A DNA stretch of 64,000 nucleotides from Azospirillum sp. TSA2s (GTDB lineage: Bacteria > Pseudomonadota > Alphaproteobacteria > Azospirillales > Azospirillaceae). The position numbers and the translations under genes were made by a program. The notes below the pieces were generated by a model. The model had not been told where the DNA came from. It saw only the letters and a list, made by a program, of their open reading frames with translations, and searched no databases. This document shows positions 1,351-38,112 of this stretch, in pieces; position 1 is the stretch's first letter, and every line of letters starts with the position of its first letter. The stretch is taken from assembly GCF_004923315.1 (NCBI RefSeq), contig NZ_CP039650.1:1253501-1317500 (forward strand). Reading direction: 5' to 3'.

Positions 1351-2028
1351 TTATTCGCTTGTTGGCCGAGGATTGGCCGACGCCTGAGCATCGGCCAGCG
1401 TGATTTCGATCCGCTCCTTGCCCTTGCCGGTGTTGCGACGCTTGAGCGTCAGCGCGCCGATCTCGCCCGTTCGGCGCAGATGCGTGCCGCCGCAGGGAAC
1501 CCGGGCGAATCCGGGGATCTCCCAGAAACGGCGTTCGGCCGCCTCGTCGCTGAAGCCGCTCAGGATGGGGGTGTCGGCGGCGACAATGCGCGCCGCCCGT
1601 TCGGCGAATTCGGGCAGCAGCGGGGTCAGCGGTTCGTTCCAGGCGAAGTCGATGCGTGCCTTGTCGGCGGCGATATGGGCGCCGACCTTGTGGATGCCGG
1701 GCAGGCGGTGCACCACCAGCTCAAGCACGATCTCGGCAGCGAAGTGCAGGCGCATCAGCCGGTAGCGGCGCTCCCAGTCGATCGCCACCGCAACGGCGTC
1801 GCCGGGGGCGAGGCGGTGGCCGGGCGCAAGCCTGTAGCGGATCTCGCGGCCGTCCTTGCGGGCTTCCAGCACCTCGAAGCCGCCGATGGTGCCGGCATCG
1901 CTCTCCTGCCCACCGGAAAGCGCGTAGAGGATGGTGGCCTCCAATATGACCTCGTCGCCGTCCACCCCGGCAATGCGGGTTTCCAGGCGGGTGCGGTAGG
2001 GATCGTCCCAGAACAGTTTCCGGGTCAT
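1351..2028 (-). CDS. AlaX-type alanyl-tRNA editing protein
   Basis: A free-standing homologue (225 residues) of the AlaRS editing domain, expected to deacylate mischarged Ser- or Gly-tRNA(Ala) in the cytoplasm. The beta-barrel part comes first (residues 1-90, with YALSGGQESDAGTIGG, the usual Gly-Gly-Gln turn), followed by the zinc-site part with RLMRLHFAAEIVLEL, GAHIAADKARIDF and CGGTHLRRTGEIG. The last motif carries the Cys/His pair. In the first motif the usual HxxxH reads HFAAE, so the second His is replaced by Glu. Start ATG 2028 has GAGG eight bases upstream and gives MTRKLFWDD; a longer frame to 2091 lacks support. It stands alone, with GST divergent on the other side. Confidence 0.85.
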   Translation of the reverse strand: MTRKLFWDDPYRTRLETRIAGVDGDEVILEATILYALSGGQESDAGTIGGFEVLEARKDGREIRYRLAPGHRLAPGDAVAVAIDWERRYRLMRLHFAAEIVLELVVHRLPGIHKVGAHIAADKARIDFAWNEPLTPLLPEFAERAARIVAADTPILSGFSDEAAERRFWEIPGFARVPCGGTHLRRTGEIGALTLKRRNTGKGKERIEITLADAQASANPRPTSE

Positions 2029-2264
2029 CGAGTGCCTCGCGGAAAGCCACAGATCAACGACGTTTTCCAAATGGATGGCCCATCCACCCATTCAGCCGCC
2101 CATCCAGCTGCTCAGTATAGCCGCTCCAATGAAACATCCGGAGGAGGTTTGTCGCGCGGGTAGGGCAGATGCCTGCCCCGGCGCAACCGGAAGGCTTGTT
2201 GCGGTCCGTGAGGTGGGTCATGCTCACGCCCCCGCTGTTTGCCCGTTTCGAAAGGTGCCGTCCG

Positions 2265-2915
2265 ATGTCCAACCTGACCCTGGTGATTGGGAACAAGACC
2301 TATTCGTCCTGGTCGCTGCGCCCCTGGCTGGCGCTCAAGCACACCGGGCTGGCCTTCACCGAGACCGTCATTCCCCTGCGCCAGCCCGACACCGCCGCGC
2401 GCATCGCGGCGCATTCGCCGTCGGGCCGCGTGCCCACCCTGATCCATGACGGGCTGACCGTCTGGGACTCGCTGGCGATCTGCGAGTATGTGGCGGAACT
2501 GGCGCCCGATGCCGGGCTGTGGCCGGCGGGCCGGGCGGCGCGGGCGGTGGCGCGGGCGGTGTCGGCGGAGATGCATTCCGGCTTCGTCTCCCTGCGCACC
2601 ACTATGTCGATGGATCTCAAGCGCGACCGCAAGGGCCAGGGCATGACCGAGGCGACCGCCGCCGACATCGCCCGGATCGAGGCGCTGTGGGCCGATGCCC
2701 GCACCCGCTTCGGCAAGCCGGCGGGCGGGCCGTTCCTGTTCGGCGCCTTCACCATCGCCGACGCCATGTTCGCACCGGTGGTGACGCGGCTGGAGACTTA
2801 TGGCGTCGCGGTGTCGCCCGAGTCGCGCGCCTATATGGACGCGGTGCTGGCGCTGCCGGCGATGCGGGAGTGGATCGCGGCGGCCAAGGCGGAGCCGTGG
2901 GAATTCGAGCCCTAA
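2265..2915 (+). CDS. Glutathione S-transferase family protein
   Basis: A 216-residue cytosolic GST. The N-terminal thioredoxin-like domain (1-80) begins MSNLTLVIGNKTYSSWSLRP, with the conserved cis-proline in GRVPTL and the glutathione-contacting motif WDSLAICEY. The helical C-terminal domain carries FGAFTIADAMFAPV, the N-capping box of the GST core. The N-terminal SxWSLRPW pattern resembles the YfcF/zeta-like group of bacterial GSTs, but the substrate cannot be read. Start ATG 2265 follows AAAGGTG; the longer frame from 2169 would add 32 residues without homology. It is divergent from the AlaX gene with a 236-bp spacer. Confidence 0.88.
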   Translation: MSNLTLVIGNKTYSSWSLRPWLALKHTGLAFTETVIPLRQPDTAARIAAHSPSGRVPTLIHDGLTVWDSLAICEYVAELAPDAGLWPAGRAARAVARAVSAEMHSGFVSLRTTMSMDLKRDRKGQGMTEATAADIARIEALWADARTRFGKPAGGPFLFGAFTIADAMFAPVVTRLETYGVAVSPESRAYMDAVLALPAMREWIAAAKAEPWEFEP

Positions 2916-3015
2916 CAGGAGAAGGAGGAGGTTCTTAAAAGGAATTGTCAGGGAGGTTGTTCTCCTTCAGATTGATAGGTGGTGGTATTCCACTTGCACT
3001 AGGAGATTTTCTAAT

Positions 3016-3369
3016 ATGACACCTATTGCGTCTGCCCTTTACGATTCACTAAAAACTCACCGTTCGGAGCGAGTTCGTCAATATCCCCAATATAGTGAGT
3101 CAAGAATTAGTCGATACACTATTTCATACGGTGAATTGTGCCGTATGGCTGAAGTTCCAATTCAGCCAATTGGAATTGGCAAGTATCTTGGTGAAGTGGC
3201 AACCCACTGTAATGAACACGGATTTCCTCCCATCAATGCACTTGCGGTCAACGGAGACAGTGGATTGCCTGGTGACAGTTACGATCAAGCGGGAGACGGG
3301 CTTTGCTCCCTTGCTAATTGGCCAAAGGAGCTAGAAAGCTGCATTAATGAACAGAGGCAATACCCATAA
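3016..3369 (+). CDS. Orphan 117-residue protein of low G+C content
   Basis: I do not recognise a characterised family. The protein has no signal peptide or membrane segment. A central segment reads GIGKYLGEVATHCNEHGFPP followed by INALAVNGDSGLPGDSYD and a C-terminal W-x-E-x-x-x-C-I pattern. I have the impression that such ALAVN...PG..YD proteins recur as small orphans in other proteobacteria, without known function. Start ATG 3016 has a perfect AGGAGA nine bases upstream at 3001. Base composition is clearly lower in G+C than every neighbour, and the codons are rich in A/T endings, suggesting recent transfer. It lies 100 bp after GST and ends before a strong bidirectional terminator. Confidence 0.65.
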   Translation: MTPIASALYDSLKTHRSERVRQYPQYSESRISRYTISYGELCRMAEVPIQPIGIGKYLGEVATHCNEHGFPPINALAVNGDSGLPGDSYDQAGDGLCSLANWPKELESCINEQRQYP

Positions 3370-3456
3370 AATAATATTGAATTATATTTTCATGTCTCTG
3401 TAATTTCCTTCATCCTGAAAGCACAGCGCGAGCAGAGTCAAAGAAAGTGCAAAAGA

Positions 3457-3494
3457 AAAACGGCGCGCCGTCCTGCCGGATGGCGCGCCGTTTT
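3457..3494. terminator. Bidirectional rho-independent terminator
   Basis: AAAACGGCGCGCC at 3457-3469 pairs perfectly with GGCGCGCCGTTTT at 3482-3494 around a 12-base loop. The T-run on one strand and the A-run on the other allow it to work both for the plus-strand orphan gene and for gltB reading leftward. Confidence 0.85.
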
Positions 3495-3507
3495 CATGTC
3501 TGACCCT

Positions 3508-3712
3508 CGACTCCCTCTCCCCCTGGGGAGAGGGGCGGGGTGAGGGGGATGCATAGCGTGGGTTTTGTGGGGATCGGGGCGTACGCGGTTCTTGAAGATC
3601 CTCGCTGCGCATCCCCCTCACCCTAACCCTCTCCCCGCTTTCGGCGGATCTTCGATCCGCCTGTCGCGTCAGCGCAAACTTCGTTTGCGCGTGAGCGGGG
3701 GGGAGAGGGGAT
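3508..3712. repeat. Intergenic CTCTCCCC-type inverted repeat block
   Basis: CCCTCTCCCCCTGGGGAGAG, followed by a GTGAGGGGGATGC arm, faces GCATCCCCCTCACCCTAACC and its downstream CTCTCCCC arm about 100 bases later. A further internal hairpin (GCGCAAACTTCGTTTGCGC) lies near 3672-3690. Related blocks occur at 8368-8410, 15323-15480, 47550-47700 and 55618-55795. Confidence 0.65.
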
Positions 3713-29951: not shown

Positions 29952-30191
29952 TCACTGCTCCTTGAAGGCGGTCGCGCCGGCGGCACGGGCCATGGTGAGA
30001 CGGGTCAGCAAGGCGCCCCGTGGCAGGCCGGCATGGCCCTGTGGCGGAAAAGCGGGGGGAAGCCGGCCAGCCTCCGTGCCCTGGGGCAGCGGATGCCAGC
30101 GGCGCTCGGCATTGGTCCAGCGCAGTTGCTCGCGCAGCAGGTCGGCGCCATGGGGGCATTGCCCCTCGATGGAGTGGAGCGGGGATGTCAT
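29952..30191 (-). CDS. Hypothetical 79-residue protein
   Basis: I do not recognise it. It begins MTSPLHSIEGQCPHGADLLR and is mostly polar with many Pro, Gly, His and Arg and no membrane segment; the composition would also fit a chance frame. In its favour, ATG 30191 has GGGGG seven bases upstream, and the stop is four bases before the well-supported start of the next gene, which suggests coupling. An ATG six bases further upstream (30197) is the alternative start. Confidence 0.4.
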   Translation of the reverse strand: MTSPLHSIEGQCPHGADLLREQLRWTNAERRWHPLPQGTEAGRLPPAFPPQGHAGLPRGALLTRLTMARAAGATAFKEQ

Positions 30192-30696
30192 GGCCATTCC
30201 CCCGGCCGGGATGTCAGAATGAAGAAGGCAAGGCTTGTCCCTGCGTCCATGGGTGCTCTCCGACACTGTTCTCCGACGATGGCCGGATGATCGGCAAGAT
30301 CGGTGGTCATGCCGTCCGGATGGAGTCACGCCAGGAAAACGCTTCGGATGCACCATCCTCGGCAAAGAGGAAGCAAGCCTGGAGTGGCTTCGGTAAATTT
30401 CAAATGGTGATCCGCTGAGAAAATTGCAATGAATGTTTTAAATGTACCGTGAGTTTCTTGGTCAGCCAAATCGAGAACAAAGGTATTTTTGCCGGGGTTT
30501 TATGGGATCATTCTCTGGTTTCATTGTAATTTCCTGTGGAAGACGAGGCTGGTTGTCCGGACATCTGCAGGAGTCCGGACAGCCAGCGCGCCTTCGGCCG
30601 GCCGCTCCACGCCTGCGTCTGCTGCAACGCTGCGCCGCCGCCGATGCCGCCGCCCTCCTGCCCGGACGCTGGTCTGAACGGGGCGTGATTCTGCCA
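30192..30696. other. Gene-free interval, partly A+T-rich, with one strong inverted repeat
   Basis: No convincing gene is seen in these 505 bases. Positions 30400-30540 are markedly richer in A+T than the surroundings. The inverted repeat at 30549-30586 is the only clear structure. A plus-strand open frame crosses it from 30442 to 31332, but over most of its length it mirrors the exported protein gene on the other strand. Confidence 0.6.
30549..30586. repeat. 14-bp inverted repeat with TGTCCGGAC core
   Basis: CTGGTTGTCCGGAC (30549-30562) faces GTCCGGACAGCCAG (30573-30586) with one mismatch and a 10-base loop. No T-run follows on either strand, so it could be an operator or an RNA hairpin rather than a classical terminator. 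It lies 111 bases past the stop of the 30697-31296 gene. Confidence 0.55.
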
Positions 30697-31296
30697 TCAA
30701 TGACTGAACTCCCCTCTCGCCATGGCGAGGTGGTGCATCTGGTGGTGGCCTCCCTGGGCCATGATGCCGATGAACCCAAGTCCCCGGATATGGGCCGTCT
30801 GCTTCGGGTCGGCGGCGGTGACGGTCAGCGAGACGCCGTTCGGCAAAGGCTCGGCCTTGACGGTCCAGCCGTTCGTGCCATCGATCTCGTGAGCGTGCGC
30901 CGGGACCATGCGGCGGATCGCTTCCAGGGTCCGCCCGTCTCCGGTGACGGCATAGATGGCTCCGCCGTCCACCGGGGTCGCAACGGCCGTCGCGTTGAGC
31001 GTGACTTCGTTCATGTCGACGAGGTGCCGGCGCAGCGCCTCGATGTCCACCCGGGACCAGTCGGTGGCCGGGTCGGCCTCCAGGATGCGGACGATCTCCT
31101 GAATGGTGCCGAAGGCATCCTGGCCGGGCATGGTCGGGACCGCGCCGGATGGCGGCATGGCGGTGCCGGCATGCTGGGTGCCATGATGGGCGGTGTGGTC
31201 CATCGGCATCGCGGTCTGAGCCGCGGCTCTCCCAAATCCGATGCCAAGTCCAACGGCGGTGACGAGGGCGAGGGTGGCGGCGGTGCGGATCGGCAT
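30697..31296 (-). CDS. Exported His-rich protein of unknown function
   Basis: A 199-residue protein with a signal peptide (MPIRTAATLALVTAVGLGIG, cleavage probably after AAA). Next comes a His/Met-rich stretch (MPMDHTAHHGTQHAG) and then a soluble domain that starts DAFGTIQEIVRILEADPATD. The C-terminus is again His-rich (GGHHQMHHLAMARG). I have a vague memory of similar unnamed proteins in other alphaproteobacteria, without a known role. The His/Met pattern suggests metal binding in the periplasm. Start ATG 31296 has a perfect AGGAGG five bases upstream. It is transcribed away from the Crp/Fnr gene, with the 26-bp palindrome 52 bases upstream of its start, so it is a likely target of that regulator. 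Confidence 0.75.
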   Translation of the reverse strand: MPIRTAATLALVTAVGLGIGFGRAAAQTAMPMDHTAHHGTQHAGTAMPPSGAVPTMPGQDAFGTIQEIVRILEADPATDWSRVDIEALRRHLVDMNEVTLNATAVATPVDGGAIYAVTGDGRTLEAIRRMVPAHAHEIDGTNGWTVKAEPLPNGVSLTVTAADPKQTAHIRGLGFIGIMAQGGHHQMHHLAMARGEFSH

Positions 31297-31347
31297 GGGA
31301 TCCTCCTGGTGGGTGACTTCCTCGGACGGTAGCCGGACTCCCTGCGA

Positions 31348-31373
31348 CGCCATATGATTGCAATCATATGGCG
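31348..31373. promoter_or_regulatory. 26-bp perfect palindrome, likely Crp/Fnr-type operator
   Basis: The centre is ATGATTGCAATCAT, extended symmetrically by AT-CAT-GGC on each side to 26 bases without a mismatch. The core ATGAT-N4-ATCAT has the same spacing as FNR/FixK boxes (TTGAT-N4-ATCAA) with one base changed per half-site. It sits between the divergent starts of the exported His-rich protein (31296) and the Crp/Fnr gene (31396), fitting auto- and cross-regulation. Confidence 0.7.
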
Positions 31374-31395
31374 GAGAATTCCGGGTGAGGCGGTT

Positions 31396-32037
31396 TTGGG
31401 AAAGCTGGGGGCAAGCGCATGGGTCGGACTCGTCGAACCGCAACGGCTCCATCGCCGAAGCCTGAAGCTGGGCGAGGTGTTGTTCCGGCAGGGCGATCCG
31501 ACCGTGGCGGTGTTTCATGTCGGCCGGGGCCGGGTGCGCCTCGTGCGGCACCTCGAAGACGGTTCGTCGGTGACGCTGCACGTTGCCCGCACCGGTGAGA
31601 GTTTTGCCGAGGCCGCCCTGTGGGCGGAGGCCTACCACTGCGATGGCGTCGCCGAGACGCCATCCGAGGTCACGGTGATCCCGAAGCCGGACCTGCTCGC
31701 CGCCCTGGAGGACAACCCACAGGCCGCGCTTGCGCTGGCCCGTGGGCTTGCGTCCCATGTCCGCGACCTGCGCAGCCGGCTGGAACTGCGGAACATCCGG
31801 TCGGCGCCGGAGAGGGTCGTGGCGTGGCTTCGGCTCCAGGTGTCGGGCGACCCGCCGATGCTGCGGCTCGACCGGCCTTGGACGGAGATCGCCGCCGAGA
31901 TCGGGCTGACGCACGAGGCCATTTACCGGGCCTTGGCCGTCTTGGAGCGCACGGGGCGGCTTGTCCGTGAGAATGGGGTGGTGACGCTCTCCGCCGGTTC
32001 GGGAACGATCGAGGACGCTGCCCGAAAGGATCGGTGA
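31396..32037 (+). CDS. Crp/Fnr family transcriptional regulator
   Basis: A 213-residue regulator with an N-terminal cyclic-nucleotide-type beta-barrel (about 15-110, with LKLGEVLFRQGDPTVAVFHV and GESFAEAALWAEAYHCDG) and a dimer helix. A C-terminal winged HTH follows (about 150-200), with recognition segment EIGLTHEAIYRALAVLERTG. It lacks the N-terminal cysteines of [4Fe-4S] FNR and contains almost no Cys, so it does not sense oxygen in that way; the effector is unknown. I prefer TTG 31396, preceded by GTGAGG. The ATG at 31354 lies inside the palindrome and would put the operator in the coding sequence. Neighbouring respiratory and metal-related genes are possible targets. Confidence 0.83.
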   Translation: MGKLGASAWVGLVEPQRLHRRSLKLGEVLFRQGDPTVAVFHVGRGRVRLVRHLEDGSSVTLHVARTGESFAEAALWAEAYHCDGVAETPSEVTVIPKPDLLAALEDNPQAALALARGLASHVRDLRSRLELRNIRSAPERVVAWLRLQVSGDPPMLRLDRPWTEIAAEIGLTHEAIYRALAVLERTGRLVRENGVVTLSAGSGTIEDAARKDR

Positions 32038-32164
32038 CGGACCGAGCGCCGCCGTACCGTTGCCCAGTCGCCAACCGGGGCCGCCCGTGTTGGAATACGG
32101 GGCGCCGTTCAGGCGTCGATCAGGCGGCCCGCATTTCCGCGGACCGCAAAACGGGAGGAACACC

Positions 32165-32416
32165 ATGCTCAGGAACGTCGCTTTGGCAGCCGTCTTCGCC
32201 GTCGCCCTGACCGGTCCGGCGCTCGCCAACAGCTGTCCCAAACACATGGCCGCCATCGACCAGGCCCTGGCGGCCAACCCGAAGCTGAGCGCTGACCAGA
32301 TGACGCAGGTGAAGAAGCTCCGCGCCGATGGCGAGACGTTCCATAAGCAGGGCAAGCATGCCGAGTCGGAGGCGACGCTCGCCCAGGCTGAAACCATCCT
32401 CGGCATCAAGAAGTGA
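32165..32416 (+). CDS. Small exported protein (83 residues)
   Basis: It has a clear signal peptide (MLRNVALAAVFAVALTGPAL, cleavage after ALA, maturing at NSCPKHM) and a short helical, Lys/Gln-rich mature part (CPKHMAAIDQALAANPKL). The mature chain is about 60 residues with one Cys. I do not recognise a named family; similar small helical exported proteins occur in Azospirillum-like genomes. Start ATG 32165 has GGGAGGA eight bases upstream. It lies 127 bases after the Crp/Fnr gene on the same strand and is convergent with the oxidase operon; no terminator is evident in the short gap. Confidence 0.7.
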   Translation: MLRNVALAAVFAVALTGPALANSCPKHMAAIDQALAANPKLSADQMTQVKKLRADGETFHKQGKHAESEATLAQAETILGIKK

Positions 32417-32491
32417 TACAGGGTGCCATGGGGGCGGAGCGATGCTCATGCCCCCATGGCGCCCCCTTTTATGGCACCGTCGTGCAGCGGT

Positions 32492-32683
32492 TCAGCCCCT
32501 GGGCGCCTTCCGGCTGACGGCGACCAGCACTCCGGCGAGCCCCAGGAACAGCATCGCGCCGCCGCCCCAGACCCGGACGTAACCGGGCATCCCAAGACTG
32601 GGGACCAGGGCGTAGACGGCGGCGAGCACCGCCCATACGGCGGCGATGACGACAACGAGCCAAAGCTCTTCGTTCATTCTCAT
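32492..32683 (-). CDS. Small membrane protein, probable third subunit of the oxidase-like complex
   Basis: A 63-residue protein with two hydrophobic helices (LWLVVVIAAVWAVLAAVYAL and a second one around GGGAMLFLGLAGVLVAVS) joined by a short polar loop. It starts 30 bases after the stop of the subunit I-like gene and has AGGAGA upstream of ATG 32683. Small one- or two-helix subunits of this kind accompany many heme-copper oxidases. I infer membership from position and topology only. Confidence 0.65.
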   Translation of the reverse strand: MRMNEELWLVVVIAAVWAVLAAVYALVPSLGMPGYVRVWGGGAMLFLGLAGVLVAVSRKAPRG

Positions 32684-32713
32684 GACGGGTCTCCTGCGCT
32701 CAGTGGCCGTCGC

Positions 32714-34405
32714 TCAGTGGCCGTGCCCGCCGCCGATCACGATGATCGGCAGCGACTGGATCAGCTGGAACGCGACGATGGTGAAGACGTACATGGCGGC
32801 GACCAGGGCCGCGACCGACAGCGGCCCGGTCCAGGCCGGGGCTGTGCCGACGCCGCGCGAGCCGGTCCGCCAATCGACCACCGGCGCCTGCTCGATCGAC
32901 GGGCGTAGCGACAGCAGCGTGCGGATGACGCCGTAGACGCTGACCGAGATGGCGATGGCGAAGATTGTGGCGCCGACGCCGACCAGGGCCATCAGCACCG
33001 GCCATGCCGCCGGGGCCATACCGCCGTAGCTGAGGTCGAAGACGCGGCGCGGCACCCCCATGAACCCGGCGGTGATGCCGGCCGCGCCGAAGATCAGCAG
33101 GCCGAGTGTCACGACGGCCGGCATGCGCCGCAGCAGGTCCGGGCGCCACAGGCTGCCTCCGCCAAGTGCCGGCAGGATCACCATCAGCGCCGCCAGGAAG
33201 GTCTGGGTCAGCACGCCGACGGCGAAGAAGTGGAAATAGCCGGGGACGAAGACGGTATCGCTCAGCATCGGCGCCAGCTTCTCCTGGATCAGGACGAAGG
33301 CGAAGGTGATGCCCAGCATCATGTTCACCACCGCCCAGCCCATGGTCGCCATCGCCGGATTGTGCCAGGGCAGCCCCCGCATCCAGCCGAAGAAGCCGGT
33401 GGCGCCGCGCGCCCGGGCGCTGGCTTCCAGCGAGGAGACGATGATGGCGAAGGCCGCCAGGGTCGGCACCGAGACGAACAGCGACAGCAGCGAGCCGACG
33501 ACCCGCAAGCTCTCCGACAGGGTCGGCTCCAGGAACATGTGGTAGAGGCTGGTCGGCGGCACGAAGACCAGATAGGCGGCGAAGACGATCTTCGACAGGC
33601 GGGCGCCGTGGATCGACGTCACCCCGGTCAGGTGTTCGCTCAGCACGTACCACACCAGCACGGTCGCCATCAGCGGCAGATAGTGCAGGTTGTGGAACAG
33701 GATGTGCCACTCGGTGCCGTGGTCGGCCGGGAACGGTCCCGTGCCGAGCGCCCACAGCAGGCCGGGCAGGAAGGCGTTGGTCGCGGCGATCGCGCTGACG
33801 ACCAGGAACCCCGCCCAGGCGAACAGGGCGAAGCCGATGGAGGTGAACTCGCTGGCCTCGCCACGCAGCCGGGGCTGGAGCACGGTCGCGATGCCGCTGA
33901 TGGCGGACGCCACCAGCCCTGCCGAAAGCAGCAGGTAGCCGAGCGCGAAGACCCCGACGGAGCGCGGGTCGTCCGCGGCCAGTTCGGGGCTGCCGTCGTA
34001 GAGCAGCGGCGTGCCGGTGGCGGAGATCCACTCGCTGACGCCGAAGCCCGCCAGCATCAGGGCGGCACCGAGCCATGCCAATGGGCGCAGGGCGAGGCCT
34101 CGGCCGTTCTCGGCCGCCGCCAGCACCAGCAGCAGGGCTGCCTGGATCAGGTAGAGCCAATAGAAGAACACGGACACGCCGTGCAGGGTCAGGATGCGGT
34201 AGGCGTCATCCGGAAAGACGGTGAGCGCCCCGGCGCGGGCGAGCGCAGTCACGAAGCCGCCAACCAACCCCAGCACAAGCGCCAGCAGGGCGGCGCCGAA
34301 CAGCAGCGTGAGAAGGGCCTTGTCGGCCGACGGCAGGGAGGCAACCCGAGCCGTGAGGCGCGAGCGCGAGCCGACAGGGGCGACGGAGGTCGAAATGGTG
34401 TCCAT
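32714..34405 (-). CDS. Heme-copper oxidase subunit I-like protein with altered active-site ligands
   Basis: A 563-residue membrane protein with about 13-14 helices, resembling B-type (ba3) oxidase subunit I. Low-spin heme ligands appear intact: His75 in LTLHGVSVFF and His392 in PGYFHFF. The CuB/Tyr segment reads WHILFHNLHYLPLM, where His238 and Tyr242 have the spacing of the His-Tyr pair of ba3 enzymes. The usual HH pair in helix VII becomes Tyr288-His289 (TSLYHMFLEP), and the high-spin heme His before His392 is Tyr390. It may therefore be a degenerate oxidase, a reductase with a rearranged metal site, or a heme-b electron carrier. Start ATG 34405 follows GAGGAGG. Subunit II is 17 bases upstream, so the genes are cotranscribed. 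Confidence 0.8.
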   Translation of the reverse strand: MDTISTSVAPVGSRSRLTARVASLPSADKALLTLLFGAALLALVLGLVGGFVTALARAGALTVFPDDAYRILTLHGVSVFFYWLYLIQAALLLVLAAAENGRGLALRPLAWLGAALMLAGFGVSEWISATGTPLLYDGSPELAADDPRSVGVFALGYLLLSAGLVASAISGIATVLQPRLRGEASEFTSIGFALFAWAGFLVVSAIAATNAFLPGLLWALGTGPFPADHGTEWHILFHNLHYLPLMATVLVWYVLSEHLTGVTSIHGARLSKIVFAAYLVFVPPTSLYHMFLEPTLSESLRVVGSLLSLFVSVPTLAAFAIIVSSLEASARARGATGFFGWMRGLPWHNPAMATMGWAVVNMMLGITFAFVLIQEKLAPMLSDTVFVPGYFHFFAVGVLTQTFLAALMVILPALGGGSLWRPDLLRRMPAVVTLGLLIFGAAGITAGFMGVPRRVFDLSYGGMAPAAWPVLMALVGVGATIFAIAISVSVYGVIRTLLSLRPSIEQAPVVDWRTGSRGVGTAPAWTGPLSVAALVAAMYVFTIVAFQLIQSLPIIVIGGGHGH

Positions 34406-34422
34406 GGTGGAGCCTCCTCGGG

Positions 34423-35049
34423 TCAGCCGACGATGATGCGGCCGTGCATGGCGTCATGCGCCTGGCCGCAATAGACGGTGCAGTAGACGAGGTACTCGCC
34501 CGGCTTGGTGAAGGTGATCGTCTGCTCGGTGACGACGTTCGGCCGCAGGCGGATGATGCGGCTGGCGGATCCCAGCTGGATCGACGCACCATGCGTGATG
34601 TCGTCCGCCATCATGCGGAACCGGTAGGCTTGGCCGAGCTTGAGCCGGAGAACGTCCGGGCTGTAGGCGAATTTCTGCGCCATCAGGTAGACGTCGACCG
34701 GCTCGGCAGACGCCATCTCCACACCGTGGTCATGGCCGGCATCGGTATGACCATGGCCGCTATGGGCGTCCGCATCGGCGAGTGGATTCACGCTCCCGTC
34801 CTTCTGCGCGTATTTCCGGACGAAGAAGTCGTGCTCGAAGCGGAACTCCTCGGGCGCCATGCCCTCGGCCGCGCCGTGGCCGCCATGGCCGTGTGCGGCG
34901 GCTTCCGGAGCGGCGTCCTTGTGTCCGGTGTGTCCGCCGAAGGGAAGCGGGGCGGCGCCATAGGCTGCCCAGGCGCCGTACAGGGAGACGGCGCCGAAGC
35001 CCAGCGCGGCGATGAAGCCGCGGCGGGTCGTGAAATGCCTCTCGGACAT
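34423..35049 (-). CDS. CuA-containing oxidase subunit II-like protein
   Basis: A 208-residue protein with a twin-arginine-like N-terminus (TTRRGFIAALGFGAVSLYGA) that probably anchors it. A long His/Gly/Asp-rich linker follows (about residues 38-112, including HGHGGHGAAEG and HSGHGHTDAGHDHG). The C-terminal cupredoxin domain has the CuA ligands in CTVYCGQAHDAMHG (Cys190, Cys194, His198, Met201) and His153 in DDITHGAS. The CuA set is thus complete, implying electron entry from a cytochrome c or cupredoxin. The His-rich linker is unusual for subunit II and may gather copper or zinc. Start ATG 35049 follows AGAGGA. It is the first of three tightly spaced genes (subunit II, subunit I-like, small membrane protein). 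Confidence 0.85.
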   Translation of the reverse strand: MSERHFTTRRGFIAALGFGAVSLYGAWAAYGAAPLPFGGHTGHKDAAPEAAAHGHGGHGAAEGMAPEEFRFEHDFFVRKYAQKDGSVNPLADADAHSGHGHTDAGHDHGVEMASAEPVDVYLMAQKFAYSPDVLRLKLGQAYRFRMMADDITHGASIQLGSASRIIRLRPNVVTEQTITFTKPGEYLVYCTVYCGQAHDAMHGRIIVG

Positions 35050-35151
35050 GATGAGAGTCCTCTGATCGCGTGGTCGGAATCGCTTGCGCACGCCGCCGGT
35101 CAGGCGGCGCATGGCCGGGCGTCCGACGCAGGCGTCAGGGCGCTCGGCCGA

Positions 35152-35511
35152 TCAGAGGCTGGTCTTCGGAGGGGGCGTGTCCGGTGTGATGTCCCGGGCG
35201 TTCGGGACGAAGCCGGCCCGCGGGTGCCAGGATGCTTCGACCATGGTCACCGGGATGGCGATGCTGTGCCGAACCGGAGCCTCGGCCGCCGGGCAGCAGG
35301 TCGCCGCGACGGCGAGGGCGGCCTTGTGGTGGCTCTGTGATGGCGCCGAAGGTGACGGGGTGTGATGAGAGCCATGATGGCCCGTCGAACCGGCGGGCAT
35401 CTCCACATTCGCCCCTACATTCGCCACGGCTCCGCCCGCCGCGCCCATCAGGAGCGCGAAGACGAACGCCAGAATGACGAGGATGTGGCCCAACCGCTTC
35501 ATGCCGACCAT
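35152..35511 (-). CDS. Exported His-rich small protein near copper-type genes
   Basis: A 119-residue protein with a signal peptide (ILVILAFVFALLMGAAGG), a His/Ser-rich stretch (GHHGSHHTPSPSAPSQSHHK), a Cys pair (TCCPAAEA) and a C-terminal Pro-rich tail ending PDTPPPKTSL. The signal-His-CysCys-Pro architecture resembles small exported proteins found beside copper resistance genes; I cannot name a family. Two starts are possible (ATG 35511 or 35502), both with weak ribosome binding sites. It lies 102 bp upstream of the subunit II gene on the same strand and may be the first gene of that transcript. Confidence 0.6.
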   Translation of the reverse strand: MVGMKRLGHILVILAFVFALLMGAAGGAVANVGANVEMPAGSTGHHGSHHTPSPSAPSQSHHKAALAVAATCCPAAEAPVRHSIAIPVTMVEASWHPRAGFVPNARDITPDTPPPKTSL

Positions 35512-35555
35512 TGCTTTGAACGACCCGGATCCGTCCGGGCCGACACAACCATAGT

Positions 35556-35569
35556 CCCCCCGTGGGGGG
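35556..35569. promoter_or_regulatory. CCCCCCGTGGGGGG dyad in the divergent region
   Basis: A six-base C-run and a six-base G-run face each other around GT, in the 280-bp region between the two divergent His/Cys-rich protein genes. It could be an operator or simply a G+C extreme. No known regulator site is matched. Confidence 0.35.
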
Positions 35570-35634
35570 CGGCCATTGATGTCCGTCAACCGACGCCGCC
35601 GATCGACCGGCATTGCCATCGAGCGCTTTTGATA

Positions 35635-35665
35635 TTGACCCTCCCACCGCTGGAGGGTCGATGTT
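35635..35665 (+). promoter_or_regulatory. CueR/MerR-type copper-responsive promoter
   Basis: TTGACC (-35, 35635-35640) is followed by 19 bases containing the dyad ACCCTCC...TGGAGGGT and then by GATGTT (-10, 35660-35665). The layout, with the dyad between the hexamers and a 19-base spacer, is that of MerR-family promoters. The sequence ACCCTCC-CACCGC-TGGAGGGT closely resembles the CueR operator (ACCTTCC...GGAAGGT). It reads toward the 35792-38588 genes. No merR/cueR gene lies in the window. Confidence 0.72.
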
Positions 35666-35791
35666 CGCCTGACGCGGCCGGTCATCGGGACGAACGTGCC
35701 GTTGCAGGGACCAGGGAATGGTCTTACGGTTGCGGGAGGGGCCGGTGGGCGCGCAGGTGCCGCCCGGCCTCGGGCAAGGAAGGCAATCGCC

Positions 35792-36190
35792 ATGTGGCGT
35801 GGGGATTGGTCGACGGTGAGGAGAGCGGTGGTGAGCCTGCTGATGCTGGCCACGCTGCTCGTCTACGCCGTGCCGAGCCACGCCGGTCTGCCGCCTCACC
35901 AGCACTCCCCGGCGCCTCATGAGGATGCCCTGGTCGACACGCAGGACGATGGTGTCGCCGCGGTGGCAGACCATGAGCACAAGCAGGATCTCTGCAAGCA
36001 CCTGGGTGTGCGCGGTGACGATGCCTGCTGTAGCGTCACCCAGTGCGCGACCATGCACTGCGCCCTCCCCGTCGATGCCGTCGCAGCCTTCATTCCGGCC
36101 ATCGACCGGGCGGACCATCTGCCGGCCCTGGCCACGCCCGAAGGCGTCGACAGCGACCCCGCACTGCGTCCCCCCTCTCTGATCCTCTGA
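35792..36190 (+). CDS. Exported Cys/His-rich small protein
   Basis: A 132-residue protein with a signal peptide (hydrophobic part VVSLLMLATLLVYAVPSHA). The mature part carries HQHSPAPHE, HEHKQDLCKHLG and DDACCSVTQCATMHC, giving five Cys and many His in about 60 residues, a likely periplasmic metal site. I cannot name a family; it has the look of small proteins accompanying copper operons. Start ATG 35792 has AAGGAAGG nine bases upstream and lies about 120 bases after the MerR-type promoter. The next gene (Spy-like) starts 146 bases downstream on the same strand. Confidence 0.68.
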   Translation: MWRGDWSTVRRAVVSLLMLATLLVYAVPSHAGLPPHQHSPAPHEDALVDTQDDGVAAVADHEHKQDLCKHLGVRGDDACCSVTQCATMHCALPVDAVAAFIPAIDRADHLPALATPEGVDSDPALRPPSLIL

Positions 36191-36336
36191 CGCCACGAGT
36201 CTGTCCGCATCCGACCTGAGCTTCGGCTCGGCAACGGGTGCCGGTTCCAGTCTTCGTGCGGTCGGCCCTTTTCATCCCGGCGCTCCCGCGTGGAGTCCGT
36301 CCGGGACGGCTCGAACCAGATGATCAGGAGGACGCC

Positions 36337-37053
36337 ATGTCGTCATTCACCCGCAAGATGCTTCCGGCCTTTGCGCTCGTCGCCATGATGTCGGCTGCCC
36401 AGGCCCAGACCGCCGCCACTCCCGACCAAAATCAGGATCACCAGGCCCACCACCCAGCCGGCGCCACGACCACCCAGGTTCAGCCCGCTCCGGCCCCGAC
36501 GCCTGCCCAGCCGTCCCAGGGAGGCCAGCCCGCCATGCCCGGCATGATGATGAACATGGACCAGATGCGCCCGATGATGGGCGGCATGATGGGTCAGCAG
36601 AGCGGCCAATCCAACAGGGTGGGGTCTGGCATGATGGGGTCTGGCATGATGGAGCAGATGATGCCCATGATGCGCCAGATGATGATGGGACAGCAGGGTG
36701 GCATGAGTGCTATGGGCGCCATGGGCCTGCCGTTCGAGCATGTCGAGGGCCGCATCGCCTTCCTGAAGGCGGAACTTGGGATCACCGACGCCCAGGCGCC
36801 GCAGTGGAATGCCTTCGCCGACACCCTGCGGTCGAACGCCAAGGCCCATCAGGCCATGCACGAGCAGATGACCAAGGGCGGCCTGCCGTCCGCGTGGCCG
36901 GATCGGCTGGCCGTTCAGCAGAAGGTCCTGGAGACCCGGCTCGACGCCATGAAGGCCATTGAGGCCGCCGCCAAGCCGCTCTATGCCGTGCTGACCGACG
37001 ACCAGAAGAAGGCCGCCGACCGGCTGTTCGCCAGCCCGATGGGAATGATGTGA
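36337..37053 (+). CDS. Spy/CpxP-like Met-rich periplasmic protein (LTxxQ family)
   Basis: A 238-residue exported protein. The signal peptide (MLPAFALVAMMSAAQA) is followed by a Gln/Pro/His-rich linker. Next is a Met-rich segment (about 68-130, with MPGMMMNMDQMRPMMGGMM and many more Met), a candidate Cu(I)-binding region. The helical C-terminal domain has two repeats of the Spy type: FLKAELGITDAQAPQWNAFA and PLYAVLTDDQKKAADRLF (the LTxxQ motif). Spy-like proteins act as periplasmic chaperones or metal-stress sensors. Start ATG 36337 has AGGAGG six bases upstream. A perfect 15-base tandem duplication (36621-36650) encodes GSGMM twice. The gene lies downstream of the CueR-type promoter. Confidence 0.82.
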   Translation: MSSFTRKMLPAFALVAMMSAAQAQTAATPDQNQDHQAHHPAGATTTQVQPAPAPTPAQPSQGGQPAMPGMMMNMDQMRPMMGGMMGQQSGQSNRVGSGMMGSGMMEQMMPMMRQMMMGQQGGMSAMGAMGLPFEHVEGRIAFLKAELGITDAQAPQWNAFADTLRSNAKAHQAMHEQMTKGGLPSAWPDRLAVQQKVLETRLDAMKAIEAAAKPLYAVLTDDQKKAADRLFASPMGMM

Positions 37054-37143
37054 GAGGCCGCCCGGCACGGGCCCGTCGCCGCGGTTGGAGCGAGGACCCG
37101 GAAGCCGTTACGGTCGTCATGGTCGATGCAGGGATCGAGCAGC

Positions 37144-38112
37144 ATGCCGATGGTCCGTCTCAATGAACGGCAGCGCCGCCGCCACAAGTTCCGGAATCTG
37201 GGGCAATCCATCCTGCTGGTGGGCAGCCTGGGTCTGCTCGTGGCGGCGATCGGCTGGCTGCTCTCCGGATGGTTCGGCGTCGTCTGGTCAGCCATCCTCA
37301 TCGGTGCGACGGTGGCGTTCAGCCCGACCGTATCGCCGCGGACGATCCTGCGGCTTTACGGAGCCCGGCGCCTCGGCCCTTACGACCTTCCCGAGGTCCA
37401 GCAGGCCACCCGGCTGCTGGCCCGGCGTGCCGGGCTGCCCAGCGTTCCCGAGTTGCACTATCTGGCGACCCCGGTGCCGAACGCCTTCACGGTCGGCTCC
37501 TCGTGCGGCAGCGCCATCGTCCTGACCGACGGGTTGCTGCGAGCGATGAGCCTGCGTGAACTGGCGGGGATCCTGGCCCACGAGATCAGCCATGTCCGCA
37601 ACCACGATCTCTGGACCATGGGTTTGGCCGACATCATCAGCCGGGTCACCAGCGCCATGGCGACGACCGGAGTCGTCCTTCTGCTCCTGAGCCTGCCGCA
37701 GACGATGGAGCGGCACGGCACGGTCAACTGGCCGCTGATCGTGCTTCTTTGGGCGGCACCCCCCATCAACACGCTCATTCAGCTGCGGCTCTCGCGCACT
37801 CGGGAGTTCGACGCCGATCTGGATGCCGCCGACCTGACCGGCGACCCGGAGGGTCTGGCATTTGCCTTGGCGAAGCTCCAGCGATACGATCCCGGCTTCT
37901 GGGAGCGTATTCTCTGGCCAGGACGGCGAAATCCGCATCCGTCCGTGCTGCGCACCCATCCCGAAATCGAGGAACGCATCGGGCGCCTGCTCTCGCTTCA
38001 GCAGGCCGACGAGGCGTTCCCCACCTCCGAAGCCCGCATGGTCGGGCTCCCCACCCATTGGGCGCGGCCGGCCCATCGGCCCCGCTGGCGCGCATCCGGT
38101 CTTTGGCATTGA
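37144..38112 (+). CDS. M48 family metallopeptidase (HtpX-like)
   Basis: A membrane zinc protease of about 322 residues. The N-terminal part has two hydrophobic helices (ILLVGSLGLLVAAIGWLLSG and the one after it). The active-site HEISH in AGILAHEISHVRNHDLWTMG supplies the two His and the Glu; the third ligand is probably in SRTREFDADLDA, 60-70 residues later. A central hydrophobic stretch (VVLLLLSLPQ) may be a third helix. The fold is that of HtpX, which degrades misfolded membrane proteins, but the sequence is not canonical HtpX. ATG 37144 follows GGGATCGAG; ATG 37126 is an alternative. It stands between the Spy-like and cytochrome c genes, suggesting a role in envelope or copper stress. Confidence 0.85.
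   Translation: MPMVRLNERQRRRHKFRNLGQSILLVGSLGLLVAAIGWLLSGWFGVVWSAILIGATVAFSPTVSPRTILRLYGARRLGPYDLPEVQQATRLLARRAGLPSVPELHYLATPVPNAFTVGSSCGSAIVLTDGLLRAMSLRELAGILAHEISHVRNHDLWTMGLADIISRVTSAMATTGVVLLLLSLPQTMERHGTVNWPLIVLLWAAPPINTLIQLRLSRTREFDADLDAADLTGDPEGLAFALAKLQRYDPGFWERILWPGRRNPHPSVLRTHPEIEERIGRLLSLQQADEAFPTSEARMVGLPTHWARPAHRPRWRASGLWH

What the first reader, a model, noticed from the sequence alone, without database searches (positions are those of the whole stretch)
32492..35049. Heme-copper oxidase-like operon with an intact CuA but replaced binuclear-centre ligands
Seen: subunit II keeps all CuA ligands (Cys190, Cys194, His198, Met201, His153). Subunit I keeps the low-spin heme pair (His75, His392) and a His238-x3-Tyr242 pair. 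The helix VII HH pair is Tyr288-His289, and the His two residues before His392 is Tyr390. Knowledge: ba3-type oxidases use H-x3-Y, HH and H-x-H at these places for CuB and the high-spin heme. Inference: the complex receives electrons through CuA but may not reduce oxygen in the usual way. It could bind one heme only, use extra His residues (234, 238, 241, 289) for another metal, or reduce a different substrate. A His-rich linker in subunit II and nearby copper-type genes add weight.
Basis: partly seen in the sequence, partly recalled or inferred. Interest (0 to 1): 0.75.

Follow-up and report, generated by a model that had tools for sequence, protein, structure and literature searches.

The report
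Oxidase-like complex with rebuilt metal site
A bacterial membrane complex built like the enzymes that breathe oxygen has, in every relative examined, two key metal-holding residues swapped for tyrosines, and it often sits among copper-resistance genes, so it probably does a different, copper-related job that has yet to be tested.

Summary
The window (an Azospirillum relative) holds a three-gene operon: a CuA subunit II with all ligands, an HCO-fold subunit I and a small membrane protein. In subunit I the ba3 CuB ligand H282 is Tyr288 and the heme-a3 proximal H384 is Tyr390. Both Tyr are fixed in 49 of 49 distinct family proteins readable there (Alpha- and Gammaproteobacteria), which form one clade (100/100). 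Also fixed: a new His241 at ba3 V236, and Ala378/Ser382 where ba3 has D372/H376 beside the a3 propionate. The altered site is the most conserved part of the protein, so it is repurposed, not decayed. His234 is not fixed. CopA-like Cu-ATPases lie within 8 kb in 7 of 23 genomes (0.21 expected) and within 15 kb in 10 of 23 (0.37 expected), but not beside the intact window locus or in four gammaproteobacterial genomes. The window genome's two decayed copies do sit near Cu-ATPases. Most likely: a CuA–heme b complex without an ordinary high-spin heme, its copper site kept by ligand swap (H282 lost, H241 gained), serving copper tolerance. The chemistry is untested. A new variant of the HCO superfamily.

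The parts
34423..35049 (-). Subunit II: Tat-like signal/anchor (TTRRGFI), His-rich linker, CuA cupredoxin domain with H153, C190, C194, H198, M201
   Evidence: HMMER match to the ba3 CuA domain, 6e-12; ligand numbering; CuA motif intact in 29 of 29 loci; RRxF in 27 of 29
32714..34405 (-). Subunit I: HCO fold; keeps H75, H392 (low-spin heme), H238, H289 (CuB) and Y242; has Y288, Y390 and a new H241
   Evidence: Pfam COX1 1.2e-30; ba3 alignment; AF2 model pLDDT 87.7, pTM 0.90; structural Z 34.9 to ba3 1ehk; family conservation
32492..32683 (-). Small membrane protein (63 aa, apparently two membrane spans), third gene of the operon
   Evidence: Translation; a small ORF in this place in 28 of 29 loci, in three BLAST groups of 18, 6 and 4 loci; no Pfam or NCBIfam match
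35152..35502 (-). Small secreted-type protein with a His-rich stretch, upstream of subunit II on the same strand; possibly part of the operon
   Evidence: Translation; similar ORF in the same place in 15 of 41 loci, all of them among the close (83% identity or more) relatives; no family match
36238..37053 (+). LTXXQ (Spy/CpxP-like) periplasmic protein, divergent neighbour
   Evidence: Pfam LTXXQ 2.2e-22; similar gene in 16 of 41 loci, and beside both decayed copies in the own genome
35696..36190 (+). Small protein of unknown family that travels with the LTXXQ gene
   Evidence: 12 of 41 loci; beside both decayed copies in the own genome
38121..38588 (+). Monoheme cytochrome c (155 aa); possible electron partner, inference only
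   Evidence: CxxCH in the translation; 89.7% DNA identity to the cytochrome c next to a Cu-ATPase on own contig 10; similar protein in only 3 of 41 loci, of which L052 is 1.9 kb away at 51% identity
31354..32037 (+). Crp/Fnr-type regulator, convergent neighbour; link to the operon unproven
   Evidence: Pfam cNMP_binding 1.1e-17; found in only 2 of 41 loci

Best explanation
A clade of the heme-copper oxidoreductase superfamily whose O2/NO site has been rebuilt. Shown by sequence: CuA ligands, the low-spin heme His pair (H75, H392), two CuB His (H238, H289) and the neighbouring Y242 are kept; Y288 replaces H282, Y390 replaces the proximal His of the high-spin heme, and H241 is new; the altered site is the most conserved part of the protein; many alphaproteobacterial members lie close to copper-resistance genes. 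Inferred: the ordinary high-spin heme is gone, because its axial His, the D372/H376 pair beside its propionate and a small Gly of its pocket are all replaced; a copper remains at a CuB-like site held by H238, H289 and, by ligand swap, H241, with Y242, Y288 and Y390 around it. Inferred function: electrons from periplasmic Cu(I) or a cytochrome c enter at CuA, pass through the low-spin heme and reach this copper/Tyr site, where O2 or another oxidant is reduced. The complex would serve copper tolerance, for example as a membrane-bound cuprous oxidase, rather than main respiration.
For: HCO fold and CuA. Fixed ligand set: Y288, Y390, H289, H392 49 of 49; H238, H241, Y242 50 of 50; H75 47 of 47. 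The three least variable 12-residue windows of subunit I are 381-392, 281-292 and 236-247. D372 to A, H376 to S, N377 to D in 25 of 25 rows, 49 of 49. The helix IX Gly present in all A-, B-, C- and eNOR-like rows shown is Ala/Ser in 31 of 31, followed by Phe in 30 of 31. One clade, 100/100. CopA-like ATPase within 8 kb in 7 of 23 genomes against 0.21 expected, within 15 kb in 10 of 23 against 0.37; multicopper oxidase, cupredoxin, CusF, LTXXQ, MerR, DUF305 neighbours. Both decayed own copies lie 8-9 kb from a Cu-ATPase. Other COX1-family proteins in 23 of 23 genomes.
Against: No CopA-like gene lies near the intact window locus, nor within 15 kb in 13 of 23 genomes, including all four gammaproteobacterial ones. 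The loci with CopA fall in two clades of the tree, so they are not independent. Part of the Gly-rich helix IX is kept (Gly365 31 of 31, Gly366 17 of 31), so a second heme is not excluded. ba3 itself tolerates some changes at D372 and H376. The Met/His-rich linker is poor in these residues in four gammaproteobacterial rows. No CueR-like box was found. No expression or mutant data were found.
Confidence: 0.42

Rival explanations
1. The high-spin heme is kept but ligated by tyrosinate Y390, as in catalases, with an altered CuB. The complex reduces O2, NO or peroxide at a Tyr-heme/Cu site.
For: Y390 stands exactly at the axial-ligand position and is invariant; Tyr is a known heme ligand in catalases (recalled). 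Gly365 and, in 17 of 31 rows, Gly366 of the helix IX pocket are kept. The nearest relatives on the tree are eNOR-like proteins.
Against: D372, H376 and the pocket Gly369 are also replaced. A Tyr-ligated heme has a low potential (recalled), which suits CuA-fed reduction badly. Two steps of the ba3 K proton path are missing in 31 of 31 rows.
Confidence: 0.25
2. No catalysis at the old site: the complex is an electron-transfer, copper-binding, sensing or assembly protein that uses CuA and the low-spin heme only.
For: Canonical catalytic ligands are gone. Subunit II often carries a His- or Met-rich linker. Every genome examined has other COX1-family proteins.
Against: The stretches around the altered site are the least variable of the whole protein, which is not expected of an abandoned site; Y242 and two CuB His are kept in all readable rows.
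Confidence: 0.22
3. It is an ordinary B-type oxygen reductase or eNOR with harmless substitutions.
For: HCO fold, CuA, low-spin heme pair and the Tyr at the cross-link position.
Against: Two metal ligands and the His equivalent to H376, which is present in all A-, B-, C- and eNOR-like rows shown, are replaced in the whole clade. No row outside the clade that was printed has Tyr at these two places.
Confidence: 0.04

Closest known systems
ba3-type (B-family) cytochrome c oxidase, Thermus thermophilus
   Same: Fold (Z 34.9, rmsd 2.5 over 469 residues, 23% identity), CuA subunit II, low-spin heme His pair, H233 and H283 of CuB, Tyr237
   Different: H282 to Tyr, H384 to Tyr, V236 to His, D372 to Ala, H376 to Ser, N377 to Asp, K-path Y244 and T312 lost
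eNOR (Gln-type nitric oxide reductase), here as eNOR-like proteins
   Same: Joined to the family in the tree, 99/96; CuA-type or cupredoxin subunit II is known for the class (PMC8756737, passage)
   Different: eNOR-like rows have Gln at the Tyr position, the HH pair and, except one row, HFH; this family has Tyr, YH and YFH
'Degenerate B-family' oxidases of alphaproteobacteria (PMC6431628, passages)
   Same: B-related subunit I with an altered active site and unknown function
   Different: Those are described as lacking the catalytic Tyr; this family keeps it and lacks two metal-binding His instead
Nitrous-oxide reductase NosZ, CuA domain
   Same: The best NCBIfam hits of subunit II are NosZ CuA domains (2.4e-07), and subunit II has a Tat-like RRxF signal
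   Different: No CuZ domain, 29.5 bits against a cut-off of 625, encoded beside an HCO subunit I
Copper-resistance determinants (CopA ATPase, two-domain multicopper oxidase, CusF, Cus-type RND)
   Same: Recurrent neighbours in relatives and beside the own decayed copies
   Different: An HCO-like complex is not, to my knowledge, a recognised part of such clusters (recalled); role untested

Membership tests
Heme-copper oxidoreductase superfamily | COX1 fold of subunit I | tested here: met
   Pfam COX1 107 bits, cut-off 34.8; structural Z 33-35.5 to solved HCOs
Heme-copper oxidoreductase superfamily | Two His for the low-spin heme | tested here: met
   H75 47 of 47, H392 49 of 49 readable rows
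Heme-copper oxidoreductase superfamily | Proximal His of the high-spin heme | tested here: not met
   Tyr390 in 49 of 49
Heme-copper oxidoreductase superfamily | Three His at CuB/FeB in canonical positions | tested here: not met
   H238 and H289 kept, third is Tyr288 in 49 of 49
B-type oxygen reductase | Tyr at the cross-link position (ba3 Y237) | tested here: met
   Y242 in 50 of 50; the cross-link itself cannot be seen from sequence
B-type oxygen reductase | K proton path Y248, T312, Y244, S309 | tested here: not met
   Y253 kept 31 of 31, S309 is Thr 31 of 31, Y244 and T312 lost in 31 of 31
B-type oxygen reductase | O2 reduction to water | not testable with these tools
   Needs the purified complex
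eNOR | Gln at the active-site residue in place of Tyr | tested here: not met
   Y242 in 50 of 50; the Gln rule is from Table A4 of PMC8756737 (passage)
sNOR, gNOR, nNOR, bNOR and B1-9 subfamilies | Match to the published subfamily profiles | not testable with these tools
   Profiles are not held; papers not held. Active-site residues N (sNOR, CuANOR) and D (gNOR) in Table A4 differ from Tyr
CuA-bearing subunit II | CxxxCxxxHxxM plus upstream His | tested here: met
   29 of 29 loci
Copper-resistance determinant | Genomic link to copper-resistance genes | tested here: met
   10 of 23 genomes within 15 kb of a CopA-like ATPase, 0.37 expected; but two clades only, and not at the window locus
Copper-resistance determinant | Induction by copper and sensitivity when deleted | not testable with these tools
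   Needs experiment

The most novel reading that the evidence does not exclude
A heme-copper oxidase lineage has given up its high-spin heme and rebuilt the active site as a heme-free copper/tyrosine centre (three His by the swap of H282 for H241, plus three Tyr), fed by CuA and one low-spin heme, and uses it as a membrane cuprous oxidase or copper-stress oxidase.
Probability: 0.28. Interest if true: 0.9.

Novelty: new variant of a known kind. Interest (0 to 1): 0.7.

Why it matters
The heme-copper binuclear site defines the superfamily behind aerobic respiration and NO reduction. A whole clade that keeps the electron entry (CuA, low-spin heme) but has replaced the catalytic ligands, under strong conservation and often beside copper-resistance genes, would show that this fold was recruited to different chemistry, and would let one test what O2 or copper chemistry is left without an ordinary high-spin heme. 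It also warns that COX1-family hits in genomes are not all oxidases.

Tried and rejected
Rejected: an alignment artefact (the motifs align the same way in HMMER, MAFFT auto and MAFFT L-INS-i). Rejected: pseudogene or decay of the window copy (dN/dS 0.12-0.25; altered site most conserved). Rejected: His234 as a fixed ligand (45 of 49). Rejected: sole terminal oxidase of its hosts (other COX1-family proteins in the own genome and in 22 of 22 others).

Led nowhere: a CueR-box pattern search (one strand, near-palindromic pattern) in window 30001-38000 and upstream of 20 loci gave no site. A pooled Pfam scan of 146 neighbour ORFs from 18 loci gave few recurrent families, P-type ATPase domains leading with 5-6 members. 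The window's Crp/Fnr, M48 and cytochrome c neighbours are not widely shared: 2, 0 and 3 of 41 loci; the cytochrome c query was out of frame and its zero is void, so it was redone. A sample of 398 genomes of the phylum gave no further family member at E 1e-40 besides the own genome, only two weaker eNOR-like matches. The papers that classify B-type NORs and HCO subfamilies (one DOI recalled, one PubMed id taken) are not held, so whether this clade is listed there could not be checked. The literature searches (listings and abstract starts; passages of seven papers read) did not turn up this clade; that is no proof that it is undescribed.

Rows dropped or partial: no usable subunit I was extracted for L019, L071 and L075; L035, L066, L089 and L090 are partial. 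A2 uses 31 rows and A3 41 rows of the 90 loci then held. Picking A- and C-type outgroups took two tries: one search chose wrong frames; one search kept 4 of 7 own-genome proteins. Structural families not listed are not excluded.
Full report
OBSERVATION. The three genes lie on the minus strand in the order subunit II (34423-35049), subunit I (32714-34405), small membrane protein (32492-32683). The genome is 8.1 Mb in 10 contigs; the nearest named records are Azospirillum. Subunit I matches Pfam COX1 with 107 bits, and its best solved relatives are Thermus ba3 oxidase chains. The alignment puts H75, H238, Y242, H289 and H392 on ba3 H72, H233, Y237, H283 and H386, and Y288 and Y390 on H282 and H384 (ba3 numbers recalled). 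Subunit II matches the ba3 CuA domain (6e-12) and has H153, C190, C194, H198 and M201.

FAMILY. A scan of the collection of 84,980 species genomes gave 41 loci; genus and class samples gave more. Sixty-six loci with at least 47% identity to the window protein give 51 distinct proteins, partial ones and the window's own included. They come from Azospirillum, Roseomonas-labelled strains, Paracoccus, Stagnihabitans, and MAGs named Tabrizicola, Rhodobacter, Devosia, Aestuariivirga, Hyphomicrobiaceae, Rhodospirillales and Gammaproteobacteria. In a sample of 385 genomes of the class, 28 matched; six of these, the own genome included, are family members and the other 22 are weaker matches. The scan used two peptide patterns drawn from five sequences, so more distant members may have been missed.

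FIXED SITE. Among readable rows, Y288, H289, Y390 and H392 are 49 of 49; H238, N239, H241 and Y242 are 50 of 50; H75 is 47 of 47; H234 is only 45 of 49. In a 31-row alignment the three least variable non-overlapping 12-residue windows of the protein are 381-392, 281-292 and 236-247, which carry the altered site; the fourth is 75-86. dN/dS against nine close orthologues is 0.12-0.25. The site is under strong constraint.

WHAT ELSE CHANGED. ba3 D372, H376 and N377 are Ala, Ser and Asp in 25 of 25 family rows of A3; the two oxidase rows keep all three, and the 14 eNOR-like rows have Asn, His, Asn. The His equivalent to H376 is present in all A-, B-, C- and eNOR-like rows displayed. [quoted passage not shown] ba3 tolerates some point changes there, while others such as H376A and H376D slow turnover (PMC10766771, passage). 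On helix IX a Gly present in all A-, B-, C- and eNOR-like rows displayed is Ala/Ser in 31 of 31 family rows, and the next residue is Phe in 30 of 31; but Gly365 is kept in 31 of 31 and Gly366 in 17 of 31. K-path residues Y244 and T312 are lost in 31 of 31, Y248 is kept, and S309 is Thr (path from PMC3141039, passages). Together these suggest that the high-spin heme is absent or bound differently.

LIGAND SWAP. H241 lies at ba3 V236, three residues after the kept CuB ligand H238, on the helix face recalled to look towards the binuclear centre; several V236 mutants of ba3 have been solved. One CuB His is lost (H282) and one His gained nearby, so a three-His copper site could survive. This is a hypothesis.

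FOLD AND TREE. The AF2 model has mean pLDDT 87.7 and pTM 0.90. The best structural matches are 7deg (Z 35.5, rmsd 2.4, 474 residues) and ba3 1ehk (Z 34.9, rmsd 2.5, 469 residues); rows within Z 1 are tied, and A-type oxidases score close behind. In a 55-row tree the family is one clade (100/100) on a stem of 2.3 changes per column, joined to eNOR-like proteins (99/96) and then to B oxidases. Holding it together with the B oxidases gives AU p 0.029; holding eNOR-like with B oxidases gives 0.034. The family stays one clade when eNOR-like or A/C rows are left out. Long branches meet, so the sister relation is unsure. The label eNOR-like rests on the Gln rule in Table A4 of PMC8756737 (passage). 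PMC6431628 (passages) describes 'degenerate B family' oxidases of alphaproteobacteria that lack the catalytic Tyr; this family keeps that Tyr, so it is another kind.

OPERON AND CONTEXT. Subunit II precedes subunit I in 29 of 29 loci examined, with the CuA motif intact in 29 of 29. A small ORF follows in 28 of 29, in three BLAST groups. RRxF at the start of the signal or anchor, like a Tat signal, is present in 27 of 29 (Tat consensus recalled). The linker of subunit II is 4-26% His+Met (median 12%) against 5-9% in three B-type subunits II, and low in four gammaproteobacterial rows. CPC-motif P-type ATPases were seen in 5 of 24 loci (L045, L046, L048, L053, L058). L049 has an OEP, a multicopper oxidase, a cupredoxin and CusF; L052 a multicopper oxidase, cupredoxin, CusF, cytochrome c and LTXXQ; L045 a MerR regulator; L046 DUF305, DUF302, a CbtA-like protein and a two-component pair; L053 a DUF2933 protein. 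LTXXQ genes occur in 16 of 41 loci. Counting CopA-like ATPases against genome size, 7 of 23 genomes have one within 8 kb (0.21 expected) and 10 of 23 within 15 kb (0.37 expected). By the tree these ten fall in two clades, so they are not independent events. The intact window locus, the four gammaproteobacterial genomes and eight others have none within 15 kb. CusF was found in 5 of 23 genomes, close to the locus in two.

OWN GENOME. It has nine COX1-family matches, two of them this gene and its truncated copy. The truncated copy on contig 7 (99% identical over 871 bases) sits with the same small-protein/LTXXQ block, followed by OEP, CusB/HlyD-like and RND genes, 9.0 kb from a Cu-ATPase. A remnant on contig 10 lies with the same block, a DUF2933 protein, a close relative of the window's cytochrome c and a YHS/HMBD Cu-ATPase, 7.9 kb away. 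The block around the window operon is thus related to copper islands, although no Cu-ATPase lies near the window copy itself.

FUNCTION. All 22 other genomes and the own genome hold further COX1-family proteins, so this is unlikely to be the main oxidase. I hold most likely a CuA-heme b complex with a remade copper/Tyr centre that serves copper tolerance, perhaps by oxidising Cu(I). Electron entry at CuA and the low-spin heme follow from conserved ligands and established knowledge of the superfamily; the single heme, the copper site and the substrate are inferred. A Tyr-ligated high-spin heme and a non-catalytic role remain open.

NOVELTY. The superfamily is known. I found no account of a clade with this ligand set in the searches, but the main classification papers are not held. 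I rate it a new variant of a known kind.

The cytochrome c query was out of frame; one search replaced its result (3 of 41 instead of 0). The probabilities are near those first drafted: best explanation 0.42 (drafted 0.45 in my working), novel case 0.28 (0.30), because the kept Gly residues, the poor linkers and the copper-free loci are now stated in full.

Noticed in passing
L113 8585-9455 (own genome contig 7) against window 32977-33847: A truncated second copy of subunit I, 99% identical over 871 bases, inside a copper/metal efflux island; the near identity suggests recent duplication or gene conversion.
   Followed up: partly
L114 7372-7592 (own genome contig 10) against window 32492-32528 and 32794-32996: A remnant of the operon (stop codons inside) beside a related small-protein/LTXXQ block, cytochrome c and Cu-ATPase; similar remnants occur in genome G005 of the same genus.
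   Followed up: partly
L040 9901-10293 and the same place in L038, L039, L041-L043: In gammaproteobacterial MAGs the small third protein is about 128 aa; in L040 it looks like a tandem duplication of the two-span unit.
   Followed up: no
window 34423-35049 and family subunits II: The CuA subunit carries a Tat-like RRxF signal in 27 of 29 loci and its best NCBIfam hits are NosZ CuA domains.
   Followed up: partly
L110 (Thermus thermophilus plasmid pHB5018d), CDS 1898-3580: An eNOR-like subunit I in which helix X reads GHFK instead of GHFH, so a low-spin heme ligand is replaced by Lys; another HCO with an altered ligand set.
   Followed up: no
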